Positions 56,448 to 59,512 of a stretch of DNA of 64,000 nucleotides are shown here, piece after piece; the stretch's first letter is position 1, and each line of letters begins with the position of its first letter. A program made the translations under genes and the position numbers. Source of the stretch: Bacillota bacterium (GTDB lineage Bacteria; Bacillota; Clostridia; Caldicoprobacterales; DTU083). The stretch lies in contig JAKPIB010000019.1 of NCBI GenBank assembly GCA_029549985.1, forward strand, positions 1-64,000. The letters are read 5' to 3'. The notes beneath the pieces are model-generated. The model saw nothing but the letters and a program-made list of their open reading frames with translations, was not told the DNA's origin and did no database searches.

Positions 56448-56663
56448 TCAATCATTGGACAGCAAACGTGCCAAAAGGCTTTTTTTCTTTCTGTCACGGG
56501 CGCTGTAGAGCTTTACGTCCTTGAGGTCGGGCATGCACTCCCTGACCCTTTCTTCAGCACCTACGCACTTGTTGCCGTCGATATAGACCTTGCCATTCTC
56601 TCTAATTATATCTACCCTGCAGCAGCGGCAACACCTGCCGCAGGTGATCTTGTCTTCAGTCAA
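56448..56663 (-). CDS. Small cysteine-rich protein of unknown function
   Basis: About 71 residues if it starts at the TTG preceded by GGGAGG; an ATG eight codons upstream is the alternative. The N-terminal CGRCCRCC cluster with two later cysteines (NKCVGAEERVRECM) suggests metal binding. The C-terminus is Lys/Arg-rich (ARDRKKKSLLARLL). A good terminator directly follows, which supports it being a real gene. No family recognised. Confidence 0.55.
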   Translation of the reverse strand: MTEDKITCGRCCRCCRVDIIRENGKVYIDGNKCVGAEERVRECMPDLKDVKLYSARDRKKKSLLARLLSND

Positions 56664-56780
56664 TGAGAGTCCCTCCCGCCGGTTCATAAATACCTTAATA
56701 TATTACACCGGGCGGGCGGTTTGCGCAAGCCTTATCAAGGTGCCCTGCCACTTACGCTGTCAGCCTCAGACTTCTTGCGC

Positions 56781-58034
56781 TCACTCTTCCGTTCTGCCGT
56801 TTGCAGCCCCATCATCGCTGCTTTCGGCCGCCTTTTTGACCTGCTCCTTGACAACGGCTCCATCGACGATATTGAGGGTACCGGTATACTCCACCCTGTC
56901 GATCACGCAGCCTGGACCTATGATCAGATCCTTTCCGACAAGGAGGCTTGTCTTCACATTCTCAAGCTCTGCATTGACCGTATATATGTCGTTTACCAGC
57001 AACTTCCCATTGTTGACGCTGTTTACCCGCTTCACGACCAGGCTCTCAGCCCGGATGTCGCCTCTTATATGGCTGTCGTCCCTGCCAAGCTCGACATAGA
57101 CGCTGTCGGCATTCAGGTTGCCCTTTATTTCAAAGACGCCTTCCCTGCATTCGAATTTATAAATGCTTGCGTCCCCGTATACGGCCAGGCACCCGCTGAC
57201 TTCAGCGCTATAGAAGTCAGCCTGCCCCTTGATGTTGCATATGCCGCTGAGGGAGAGATGCTTTGCCTGCAGGCTGCCGTCTATTTCTGTAAAGCCGGCG
57301 TTTGCAAACTCAGCACATTTGAGCCCGCCTCTGATATCGACCTTGCCACTAACCGCCAGCTTGCCTGTCTCAACAGAAGAGCTGAAATCGACCATGCCAG
57401 AAACAGATATCCTGTCGGAAGCATTGGCTGCCCCCTTTACATAGGCATTGCCGGATACATCCATTTTCTCGGTCAGGATATCGCCGTTGAACTCTCCTAC
57501 GCCGGAAATGTTGATCTTCCCGGCCTCCACATTGCCGGCGAACTTACCCATGCCCGATATTGCTATCTTTTCTGTTTTGACATCATCCTGGTAGCTGCCA
57601 AAGGAATCGATGACTATTTTCTCGTACCGGCTGCTGCCTCCCCGGCTTTCATGATGCCCCTTGCCGCCGAAAAAGGAATCCCCGGGTATGTTTATAGGCG
57701 GGATCCTGATCTCGGGGATCCGTACCGGGGGTATCTCGATTTTGGGGATCCTGATCTCAGGCATATGGAACTTGAAATATGGCCGGTCCTGGCCCGAGCT
57801 GTCATCACCCGCCTCATCATCGTCGGATGGACCGCTGTCAGCCTCACTGGTACCGGTTTCAAATTGAAAATCGAAATTCTTGGCTTCTTCCTCATCTATT
57901 AGCTCCGGCTCGGGATTCGCATCCCCGGCATCAAAGCCATAGTTCTCAAACGCATCCAGGAGCTCCAGGGCTTCCTCCATGCTGATCTTGCCCTCTTTGA
58001 ACATTTCAAGGATTTTCAGTCTTTCATCCTTCAC
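56781..58034 (-). CDS. Bactofilin-like beta-helix protein with N-terminal SHOCT-like domain
   Basis: A 417-residue protein. Residues 1-28 (MKDERLKILEMFKEGKISME) fit the SHOCT-like/YvlB start; 30-85 are acidic; 90-115 hold a run of IPxI repeats (PEIRIPKIEIPPVRIP); from about 135 come many turns of roughly 14-20 residues of the type KIAISGMGKFAGNV and KINISGVGEFNGDI, predicted to form a long beta-solenoid as in bactofilins. It starts with GTG, 24 bp after the DUF2089 gene. Such proteins polymerise without nucleotides, so a scaffold role is likely but unproven. Confidence 0.75.
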   Translation of the reverse strand: MKDERLKILEMFKEGKISMEEALELLDAFENYGFDAGDANPEPELIDEEEAKNFDFQFETGTSEADSGPSDDDEAGDDSSGQDRPYFKFHMPEIRIPKIEIPPVRIPEIRIPPINIPGDSFFGGKGHHESRGGSSRYEKIVIDSFGSYQDDVKTEKIAISGMGKFAGNVEAGKINISGVGEFNGDILTEKMDVSGNAYVKGAANASDRISVSGMVDFSSSVETGKLAVSGKVDIRGGLKCAEFANAGFTEIDGSLQAKHLSLSGICNIKGQADFYSAEVSGCLAVYGDASIYKFECREGVFEIKGNLNADSVYVELGRDDSHIRGDIRAESLVVKRVNSVNNGKLLVNDIYTVNAELENVKTSLLVGKDLIIGPGCVIDRVEYTGTLNIVDGAVVKEQVKKAAESSDDGAANGRTEE

Positions 58035-58058
58035 CGCAACAACTCTCCTTTCTGACGG

Positions 58059-58439
58059 TTATCTGGACTTCAGTTTTTTAAGTGCTTCCTGAGGCGTGAT
58101 ATCGCCCTTATCCAAAGCATTGAGAATCTCAGCCATATCCTTTCTGTCCCTGACGACAGCAGGCTCTGTCCCGGAGGATAGGCCCAGGGCTTTAAGCGCA
58201 TCCTCCAGGCGGTTGCGTATGGTGGGATACGATATGCCAAGCTCCTTTTCCATGTCCTTTATATTGCCTCTGCATTTCAAGAATACCTCGATAAAGTCCA
58301 GCTGATCGCTGCTCAGGCTGCAGAACCTGCAAGGAGCAAACTCTCCTTCAGTCCTGGACTTGCATGTAGGGCACATAAAGCTGGTAATGGTTATATCATG
58401 GCCGCAGATGCAGCACCTGCCCGGCATTTTGTACTTCAA
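58059..58439 (-). CDS. DUF2089 family zinc-ribbon/HTH protein
   Basis: About 126 residues from the TTG preceded by GGAGGTG. The N-terminus has zinc-ribbon pairs (CCICGHD, CPTCKS) and CRFC; residues 45-95 form a sigma-region-4-like HTH (CRGNIKDMEKELGISYPTIRNR); the tail DKGDITPQEALKKL resembles the SHOCT-like piece of its downstream neighbour. DUF2089 proteins are putative regulators usually linked to such beta-solenoid proteins. It probably controls this two-gene operon. Confidence 0.85.
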   Translation of the reverse strand: MKYKMPGRCCICGHDITITSFMCPTCKSRTEGEFAPCRFCSLSSDQLDFIEVFLKCRGNIKDMEKELGISYPTIRNRLEDALKALGLSSGTEPAVVRDRKDMAEILNALDKGDITPQEALKKLKSR

Positions 58440-58468
58440 ATGCCTCACCTCCTCCACTATTTGCCTAT

Positions 58469-58541
58469 ATTAAACCACTATGTTTTAAATATGTCAATAC
58501 TATGATTAATAATTTTAATTTTTGTATTAATATAATTAATA
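58469..58541 (-). promoter_or_regulatory. Promoter and possible operator of the DUF2089 operon
   Basis: Minus-strand TTGACA (58492-58497), 17-bp spacer, TTTAAT (58469-58474), about 25 bp before the start. Upstream lies the palindrome TATTAAT/ATA/ATTAATA (58525-58541). The rest of this 377-bp gap is AT-rich and shows no gene. Confidence 0.65.
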
Positions 58542-58816: not shown

Positions 58817-59512
58817 ATGAACATACAAAATTTCTCCGACTTTTGCGACGCCCTGCTGGATTGCGGTTTTTCCATGGGCGGAGGCAGCGCAAAAGGTATC
58901 TATGCGATCATTCCCTATAGCTGGACCGAGCAGGACCTTGTCGATTCACCGGTGAAATGGCATACGGGCGACCCCGGGACCGACCCGTGGCAGTGGCGCA
59001 TGCGTGTACTTGAGGAGCGGGATGATATTGCCTACGCCAAGGTATTCTTCCGCACGAGCGGATATATCACAAGGGAATGGTATCCGTATTTCTATGCAGT
59101 GCGCAGAAATGGCCAAAGCTTAGAGGATGCCTATGAAAGCGGCACAATAAGCCATACTGCCAAAAGGATATATGATATCATCTCACAAAACGGGACCGCA
59201 GCCTACCATGAGATCAAAAGGCTGGGCGGTTTCCACAGGGAGGAAAACTCCTCCTTTGAAAGAGCTGTCGTTGATCTGCAGATGGGCATGTTCATCACCA
59301 TTTGCGGCAGAGCGCAAAAGACCAACAAATACGGCATGGGCTACGGCTGGGACAGCACGGTTTTCACTACGGTGGAGGATTTTTGGGCTTCCCGCGGCTT
59401 TACCCTGCCCGATCACGATCCGGATGAAAGCTACGAAAGGATAAGAGCCCGGATACTTGAGCTGAACCCCGATGCTGATGACAGGAAAATCGCCAGGTTT
59501 ATAAGAGGGTAG
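58817..59512 (+). CDS. AlkZ-related protein
   Basis: A 231-residue soluble protein I recognise as the AlkZ-related group in Clostridia: MNIQNFSDFCDALLDCGFSMGGG start, GDPGTDPWQWRMRVL, AKVFFRTSGYITREWYPYF and a C-terminal half with winged-helix-like GTAAYHEIKRLGGF. AlkZ proteins are DNA glycosylases that unhook crosslinks, but this family lacks the proven catalytic QxQ segment as far as I can see, so enzymatic action is uncertain. Single gene with its own ribosome binding site. Confidence 0.65.
   Translation: MNIQNFSDFCDALLDCGFSMGGGSAKGIYAIIPYSWTEQDLVDSPVKWHTGDPGTDPWQWRMRVLEERDDIAYAKVFFRTSGYITREWYPYFYAVRRNGQSLEDAYESGTISHTAKRIYDIISQNGTAAYHEIKRLGGFHREENSSFERAVVDLQMGMFITICGRAQKTNKYGMGYGWDSTVFTTVEDFWASRGFTLPDHDPDESYERIRARILELNPDADDRKIARFIRG

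What the first reader, a model, noticed from the sequence alone, without database searches (positions are those of the whole stretch)
56781..58439. DUF2089 regulator and SHOCT-headed beta-solenoid protein as a two-gene scaffold system
The two proteins share a short SHOCT-like helical pair: ISMEEALELLDAF at the start of one and ITPQEALKKLKSR at the end of the other. This suggests they bind each other or a common partner through it. The larger protein also has an IPxI-repeat segment like a pleated spacer before its solenoid.
Basis: partly seen in the sequence, partly recalled or inferred. Interest (0 to 1): 0.5.

Follow-up and report, generated by a model that had tools for sequence, protein, structure and literature searches.

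The report
Self-regulated bactofilin operon with shared hairpin
A small bacterial operon pairs a predicted DNA-binding regulator with a cytoskeleton-like protein that carries the same short helical tag, and its promoter holds a regularly spaced set of predicted binding sites, which suggests that the regulator controls its own operon.

Summary
The helical pair is a curated Pfam domain (PF22746, SHOCT-like): C-end of the ZnR-HTH protein DUF2089, N-end of a 417-aa protein with a bactofilin-type solenoid (PF04519). Of 76 named DUF2089 loci with 400 nt or more downstream, 75 are followed by a SHOCT-headed gene. The body varies: of 76 partners, 18 match Toastrack, 2 bactofilin, most are small. DUF2089 = ZnR+HTH+SHOCT beside Toastrack is in print (Ravi 2024); the bactofilin version I found in no search.

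New: promoters of zinc-ribbon DUF2089 carry palindromes ATTAA-N5-TTAAT at 21-bp steps (61 perfect sites, 1.2 in shuffles; 191-fold denser than elsewhere in the loci). The window has two perfect copies and a third over the -35 box, the only such array found in its assembly. Best reading: DUF2089 is an autoregulator, probably a repressor, with feedback from the effector. Direct hairpin binding is not shown: the co-evolution test was negative, and a tested SHOCT domain did not oligomerise (PMC3581485). The 'pleated spacer' is predicted disordered and absent in one of five relatives. New variant of a known kind.

The parts
58059..58439 (-). DUF2089 regulator gene, 126 aa from TTG at 58439 (ORF list: GTG at 58457, 132 aa), TAA stop included
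   Evidence: start chosen by ribosome-binding site and relatives
58362..58415 (-). zinc-ribbon cysteines CxxC...CxxC (within PF22747)
   Evidence: E 1e-6, over cut-off; the four Cys are invariant in the 8 rows of alignment A1
58179..58316 (-). HTH of DUF2089 (PF09862)
   Evidence: E 8.8e-25
58068..58130 (-). C-terminal SHOCT-like hairpin of DUF2089 (weak PF22746 match)
   Evidence: E 0.046, below cut-off; shuffles
56781..58034 (-). SHOCT-headed bactofilin-type protein, 417 aa, stop included
57945..58028 (-). N-terminal SHOCT-like hairpin (PF22746), helices 2-13 and 19-31 in the model
57681..57764 (-). IPxI repeat inside a linker (residues 33-132) predicted disordered
   Evidence: sequence; (pLDDT under 50); absent in G011
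56835..57635 (-). beta-solenoid, residues 134-400, about 17 residues per rung
   Evidence: most blocks pLDDT above 90; Bactofilin PF04519, best stretch residues 138-202
58526..58540 (.). predicted operator site 1, perfect ATTAAN5TTAAT
58505..58519 (.). predicted operator site 2, perfect, 21 bp from site 1
58484..58498 (.). predicted operator site 3, degenerate (2 mismatches; ATTGACATATTTAAA on the minus strand), 21 bp from site 2, contains the -35 box
58492..58497 (-). -35 box TTGACA (6 of 6); 17 nt spacer to -10 TTTAAT at 58469-58474 (5 of 6)
   Evidence: read from the sequence; not listed by the simple promoter scan, which asks for A at position 2 of the -10
56448..56687 (-). 79-aa Cys-cluster protein, probable third gene; terminator-like hairpin at 56444-56418 behind it
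   Evidence: also behind the pair in G001; terminator-like sites in that scan are no more frequent than in shuffles: 3 found, 2.3 expected

Best explanation
An autoregulated effector operon. DUF2089 (zinc ribbon + HTH + SHOCT-like hairpin) binds an array of three 15-bp palindromes spaced exactly two helical turns (21 bp) upstream of its own gene. Because the proximal site covers the -35 box and part of the spacer, binding most likely represses the operon, cooperatively. The second gene makes the effector: a long bactofilin-type beta-solenoid tethered by a disordered linker to the same hairpin. The hairpin brings regulator and effector to the same place (each other, or a common membrane or protein partner), so that the free or assembled state of the effector sets how much regulator sits on the operator. 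SHOWN by computation: domain make-up, linkage, body swapping behind a constant head, and a site array that tracks zinc-ribbon DUF2089. INFERRED: that DUF2089 is the protein that binds the array, the sign (repression), and the hairpin feedback. Rough odds: array is bound by DUF2089 0.8; net repression 0.6; feedback through the hairpin 0.45.
For: Sites: 61 perfect in 75 non-redundant upstream regions against 1.2 in shuffles (max 5 of 100); pairs 21 bp apart 121 against 1.6. In 76 named loci, 69 perfect sites in 18979 nt upstream of DUF2089 against 11 in 577679 nt elsewhere; 21-bp pairs 136 against 17. Two-site pattern in 29 of 44 DUF2089-bearing genomes (reversed control 6 of 44) but 18 of 75 without it (control 21 of 75): my join by hand of the tables; the match list was cut, and of the 29, 17 have a listed match at the DUF2089 promoter, one about 0.6 kb upstream, 3 only elsewhere, 8 were not listed. 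In the window's assembly the only matches up to 3 mismatches are at this promoter; 2 perfect single sites in 64 kb, 0.11 expected. DUF2089s without zinc ribbon, which were not followed by SHOCT-headed genes, mostly lack sites: 6 of 7 have none up to 1 mismatch, the seventh has one. The array occurs with small, Toastrack and bactofilin bodies and with a further repeat body, so it follows the regulator, not the effector. Linkage 75 of 76; 76 of 76 partners match PF22746. Bactofilin-type DUF2089s form one clade (SH-aLRT 99) apart from the small-type paralogue of the same genome G025.
Against: No binding or expression data. Hairpin co-evolution test negative. PF09851 SHOCT did not oligomerise in a published test. 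13 of 75 promoters have no site up to 1 mismatch and 34 of 75 no perfect site. One zinc-ribbon DUF2089 (G041) shows only a single site, with 2 mismatches. In two bactofilin-type relatives (G011, G025) the array is degenerate, and in G002 the contig begins too close to test it. A site overlapping the -35 was found by a strict pattern in only 33 of 76 loci. Sites are very AT-rich, so an AT-preferring protein or UP-element role is not excluded. Activation from these positions is not excluded.
Confidence: 0.5

Rival explanations
1. Both hairpins are separate anchors to the inner membrane face or to one third protein; regulator and effector never touch. The regulator senses membrane state like the Lia/Psp modules, and the effector is simply its product.
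For: Ravi et al. 2024 propose membrane anchoring for SHOCT-like domains and a Lia-like role for DUF2089/Toastrack contexts (passages). No hairpin-specific co-variation. A Phage_holin_4_2 (YvlD-like) membrane gene sits in the small-type operon of L146, and similar ones by eye in others.
Against: No PspC/LiaF-type gene among the six window proteins scanned around and including the pair. Anchoring alone does not explain why 75 of 76 loci have a SHOCT-headed gene directly behind DUF2089.
Confidence: 0.35
2. The two hairpins bind each other directly, for example as a four-helix bundle, and the effector is an anti-repressor or co-repressor.
For: Homologous hairpins at facing ends of neighbouring genes; constant head while the body is swapped.
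Against: Co-evolution test negative; own-pair hairpins are no more alike than mismatched pairs (mean score 36.0 against 36.5); a PF09851 SHOCT domain was found not to oligomerise. No complex was modelled here.
Confidence: 0.25
3. The palindromic array is the target of another AT-preferring regulator, or a promoter UP-element, and DUF2089 acts elsewhere.
For: The perfect sites are almost wholly A and T, spacer included; some two-site matches lie away from DUF2089 and in genomes without it.
Against: Excess over the reversed control is seen in genomes with DUF2089 and not in those without; exact 21-bp phasing; almost absent at 7 promoters of DUF2089s without zinc ribbon, three of which have G+C of only 0.18-0.19.
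Confidence: 0.2
4. An ordinary bactofilin gene beside an unrelated regulator; the shared hairpin and order are accidental.
For: Bactofilin relatives elsewhere often sit beside a different putative regulator family, YhbD/DUF4004 (10 of 23 loci; Pfam check of one).
Against: The order is kept in six genomes of the bactofilin kind, counting one whose contig ends inside the partner; 75 of 76 linkage in the wider family.
Confidence: 0.03

Closest known systems
DUF2089-Toastrack neighbourhoods (Ravi et al. 2024, PMC11237479)
   Same: DUF2089 = ZnR + HTH + SHOCT-like; SHOCT-like head on Toastrack proteins; predicted transcriptional output for a membrane-linked signal (passages read)
   Different: Here the body is a bactofilin-type solenoid, not Toastrack; 'bactofilin' has no occurrence in that main text; no operator is described in the passages read
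LiaX of enterococci / YvlB of Bacillus subtilis (PMC10269926, PMC9239133, passages read)
   Same: N-terminal head of the same kind (weak NCBIfam dapto_LiaX match to residues 3-31; PF22746 also rings in the B. subtilis control genome) followed by a beta-rich body
   Different: Toastrack (DUF4097) body, PspC and YvlD neighbours; LiaX works with the two-component system LiaFSR instead of DUF2089
BacE/BacF (YhbE/YhbF) bactofilins with YhbD of B. subtilis and Clostridia (PMC4627819, passages read)
   Same: Bactofilin solenoid beside a putative regulator gene; the solenoid profile A3 finds bactofilins of this kind in Clostridia (E about 1e-10 to 1e-40)
   Different: No SHOCT head seen in those loci; shorter proteins; the neighbouring gene is DUF4004, not DUF2089

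Membership tests
DUF2089 (PF09862/PF22747/PF22746) | HTH PF09862 over cut-off | tested here: met
   86.6 bits against 33.4
DUF2089 (PF09862/PF22747/PF22746) | zinc ribbon PF22747 over cut-off | tested here: met
   29.1 bits against 27.6
DUF2089 (PF09862/PF22747/PF22746) | C-terminal PF22746 hairpin over cut-off | tested here: inconclusive
   13.8 bits against 27, but 9 of 20000 shuffles against the partner hairpin and over cut-off in some relatives' DUF2089 frames, e.g. G022
Bactofilin (PF04519) | family profile over cut-off | tested here: met
   37.8 bits against 27.9; four relatives 37.4 to 57.2
Bactofilin (PF04519) | beta-helix with about 17-18 residues per turn (repeat length recalled) | tested here: met
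   rung starts 134, 151, 169, 186, 203, 221, 238 ... in the predicted model; handedness not measured
Bactofilin (PF04519) | structural match to a solved bactofilin | tested here: inconclusive
   no PDB match with E up to 0.001; generic beta-helices in the lists
Bactofilin (PF04519) | polymerisation | not testable with these tools
   needs protein
LiaX (NF038025) | NCBIfam model over cut-off | tested here: not met
   12.6 bits against 350, head only
Toastrack (PF13349/DUF2807) | Toastrack profile in the body | tested here: not met
   not among the matches up to E 1
PSP/Lia-type membrane stress module | PspA, PspC or LiaI-LiaF-TM partner beside the pair | tested here: not met
   none among the six window proteins scanned with Pfam; the rest of the genome was not searched for them

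The most novel reading that the evidence does not exclude
Assembly-coupled control of a cytoskeletal polymer: the solenoid protein reports its own assembly state to its dedicated autorepressor through a shared helical hairpin. Free subunits and assembled subunits present the hairpin differently, and a 21-bp-phased operator array turns that into a cooperative on/off of the operon. The head is a standard plug behind which evolution has swapped at least four bodies (small domain, Toastrack, bactofilin, Gly-Asn/Asp-Val repeat).
Probability: 0.25. Interest if true: 0.75.

Novelty: new variant of a known kind. Interest (0 to 1): 0.5.

Why it matters
DUF2089 is common in the Bacillota genomes sampled here, and I found no paper that tests its function (seven papers, passages read in three). 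A defined, phased operator makes its DNA-binding role testable in one gel-shift experiment, and the SHOCT-headed partners, most of them small proteins without a convincing body family, become assignable as its effectors. The bactofilin version would link a bacterial cytoskeletal protein to a dedicated transcriptional feedback, for which I found no paper in the searches named.

Tried and rejected
Hairpin co-evolution (partial Mantel): a first run cut the N-heads at a fixed offset and was partly out of register; it gave small positive values (C~N given H r 0.14, p 0.002, 74 loci; given H and body r 0.07, p 0.068, 54 small-type loci). The corrected run shows no hairpin-specific signal (r 0.05, p 0.15; small-type r -0.05, p 0.83, and r -0.16, p 0.997 with the body also taken out). 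One search is the one relied on. It left out L163 (no match to my tail pattern) and L178 (cut off).

Regulon search: two-site matches away from DUF2089 in G014, G022, G043, G053 and G086 were inspected (genes named by eye). Neighbours were ABC transporter-like genes (G014, G022), a zinc-ribbon protein (G043) and an aminotransferase-like gene (G053, G086); nothing coherent, so no regulon is claimed. In the window's own assembly no second array was found.

Structure: the solenoid model is good, but Foldseek gave nothing at E up to 0.001; the VIA-align second look gave generic beta-helices (YdcK first at Z 20.0, rmsd 12.0, 252 aligned). No row I saw in the lists was named a bactofilin; this excludes nothing. 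The small body (A9) folded poorly (pLDDT 60.7, pTM 0.31) and was not searched.

Complex modelling: I made joint read-through alignments A5-A8 to see whether the two hairpins could be folded as one chain, found A5-A7 partly misaligned (A6 seen only as a summary), and did not submit any, because the tool returns no contacts and a forced linker would bias the answer.

An IP-repeat function was dropped: the repeat is absent in G011.

Full report
WHAT IS THERE. The two genes are on the minus strand, 58439-58059 (DUF2089) and 58034-56781 (417 aa). DUF2089 has a zinc ribbon (PF22747) and an HTH (PF09862), both over cut-off, and a weak C-terminal PF22746 match; the 417-aa protein has PF22746 at residues 3-30 and Bactofilin PF04519, both over cut-off. 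So the shared hairpin is a known curated domain, named after DUF2089 itself. The window hairpins are alike beyond composition (9 of 20000 shuffles as good). A 79-aa Cys-cluster protein and a terminator-like hairpin follow; a like small gene also follows the pair in the same-genus genome G001.

LINKAGE. PF09862 occurs in 44 of 119 related genomes and PF22746 in 53 of 119; all 44 are among the 53 (my comparison of the two tables). In six of the 44 (G038, G041, G052, G063, G098, G108) I judged every match at that threshold to be DUF2089's own tail; G041 does have a SHOCT-headed neighbour at a weaker score (E 0.018). Of the 79, 76 have at least 400 nt downstream, and 75 of the 76 have a SHOCT-headed frame directly downstream, at most 390 nt away; the exception (L137) has a cut-short DUF2089 frame. 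Apart from DUF2089's own tails and extra copies further downstream in two loci (L170, L177), no other stretch among the 12959 scanned scored over 10 bits (the profile was seeded from heads seen). Pfam's own model agrees: all 76 partners match PF22746 at E up to 0.01; 18 match Toastrack DUF4097 and 2 Bactofilin (a tally). By length 56 are at most 175 aa (one, L178, cut off by its contig end) and 20 are larger. The tally shows only scattered weak matches that could belong to the small bodies (best: ComZ, 10 members, best E 0.00035); none was followed up. The two bactofilin rows, L101 and L102, are contigs of the same lengths as those of G001 and G002, so the named and unnamed sets overlap. Counter-examples: DUF2089 proteins without zinc ribbon are followed by small membrane proteins, not SHOCT-headed ones (7 loci). 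DUF2089 proteins of 89 and 98 aa are also listed in two leaderless-bacteriocin gene clusters (table passages of PMC7332713 and PMC10707071); that they are of this second kind is my inference.

BODY SWAP. The bactofilin version is rare: near full-length matches to the body profile in 4 of 391 class genomes (G000, G002, G011, G025), plus G001, which was not in that sample; G006 has the same regulator type, but its contig ends inside the partner. Their DUF2089s (5 rows) form one clade (SH-aLRT 99; 86 rows, only 82 columns, quick tree), while the small-type DUF2089 of the same genome G025 lies elsewhere; the three partner kinds need 5 changes on the tree against 23.1 in shuffles (the truncated locus L178 was labelled Toastrack by me). 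The body's next relatives, in 23 further genomes, are bactofilins of mostly 200-300 aa; 10 of 23 such loci have a YhbD/DUF4004-type gene beside them and 0 of 23 a DUF2089 within the 2.2-3.8 kb held (by pattern; Pfam check on L187). In B. subtilis yhbD lies upstream of yhbE/yhbF in a putative operon (PMC4627819, passages). G042 has yet another SHOCT-headed body, a 557-aa Gly-Asn/Asp-Val repeat, and G025 has a bactofilin-SHOCT-solenoid fusion at a second locus (both domain matches below cut-off).

STRUCTURE. AlphaFold2 on 5 sequences: two helices (2-13, 19-31), residues 33-132 under pLDDT 50, solenoid 134-400 mostly above 90 with rungs of about 17 residues. The IPxI repeat falls in the low-confidence linker and is missing in G011.

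OPERATOR. Reading the upstream regions showed ATTAA-N5-TTAAT repeated at 21 bp. In 75 non-redundant regions (of 79) there are 61 perfect sites (1.2 expected, max 5 of 100 shuffles), in 41 of 75 regions; 62 of 75 have a site with up to 1 mismatch (15.4 in shuffles, max 25); pairs at 21 bp: 121 against 1.6. Within 76 named loci the density upstream of DUF2089 is 191 times that elsewhere (69 in 18979 nt, 11 in 577679 nt); 21-bp pairs 136 against 17; a site over the -35 was found by a strict pattern in 33 of 76. By partner kind, a 21-bp pair is present in 49 of 58 'small' (which here includes four loci with cut or unknown partner), 15 of 17 Toastrack and 1 of 1 bactofilin loci. Whole genomes: joining by hand, 29 of 44 DUF2089-bearing genomes have the two-site pattern (reversed pattern 6 of 44), against 18 of 75 others (reversed 21 of 75). 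The list of matches was cut: of the 29, 17 have a listed match at the DUF2089 promoter, G053 has one about 0.6 kb upstream, G014, G015 and G043 have listed matches only elsewhere, and 8 were not listed. In the window's own assembly (52 contigs, 96.7% complete) the only matches up to 3 mismatches are the two overlapping pairs at 58484-58540; the reversed control gave 1. Promoters of DUF2089s without zinc ribbon: 6 of 7 have no site up to 1 mismatch, one has one. In the window, site 3 contains TTGACA; 17 nt further is TTTAAT (read). By the usual numbering site 3 spans about -36 to -22, a position that favours repression (established promoter logic; inference).

MECHANISM AND RIVALS. The array follows the regulator across four kinds of effector body, so the simplest reading is that DUF2089 binds it and controls its own operon. 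How the effector acts back is open: direct hairpin binding, a common anchor, or none. A hairpin-specific co-evolution signal was looked for and not found (r 0.05, p 0.15 for 74 loci; r -0.05, p 0.83 for 54; an earlier, misregistered run is told under Tried and rejected), and the abstract of the paper that named SHOCT says that its experiments do not support a role in oligomerisation (PMC3581485, abstract and passages; another Pfam family, PF09851).

PRIOR WORK. Ravi et al. 2024 (PMC11237479, abstract and passages) divide DUF2089 into ZnR, HTH and SHOCT-like parts, place it in a four-gene context with Toastrack and propose membrane anchoring by SHOCT-like domains. Searches that found no paper: SHOCT + bactofilin, bactofilin + DUF4004, PF22746 / PF09862 / 'Zn ribbon DUF2089'. 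DUF2089 alone gives 7 papers, of which I read passages in three. Bactofilin + transcription + autoregulat + operator gave 3 papers, by title on DNA partition and plasmids (listing only). The library holds only open-licence PubMed Central papers and no bioRxiv preprints.

VERDICT. A real, conserved and partly known module. The window's version is a new variant (bactofilin body), and the phased site array is the new, directly testable result.

Noticed in passing
window 56448-56687 (-): 79-aa protein with CGRCCRCC cluster behind the pair, a like gene also in G001, followed by a terminator-like hairpin at 56444-56418; probable third operon gene of unknown role.
   Followed up: partly
L073, L075, L076, L077, L078, L079, L080 (G098, G063, G108, G038, G094, G116, G052): A second DUF2089 kind without zinc ribbon, followed by small membrane proteins, several ending in KMNIQDL-like tails; no site up to 1 mismatch at 6 of 7 promoters.
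   Followed up: partly
L074:1921-4005 (G042): DUF2089 followed by SHOCT head + 557-aa Gly-Asn/Asp-Val repeat protein, a fourth body kind, with four sites in 21-bp register upstream (two with 1 mismatch, two with 2).
   Followed up: partly
L088:30-1984 (G025 contig 7): Bactofilin-like 282-aa gene next to a 369-aa bactofilin-SHOCT-solenoid fusion (matches below cut-off), with no DUF2089 seen in the 4 kb held.
   Followed up: partly
small partners in L103-L176: About 100-aa body without a convincing Pfam family behind the SHOCT head, often followed by a second small gene and, in some, a YvlD-like membrane gene (Phage_holin_4_2 checked in L146); fold prediction poor.
   Followed up: partly
window 58817-59509 (+): Divergent neighbour is an AlkZ-related protein (PF24741, E 2.1e-64); the site array lies between it and DUF2089.
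   Followed up: no
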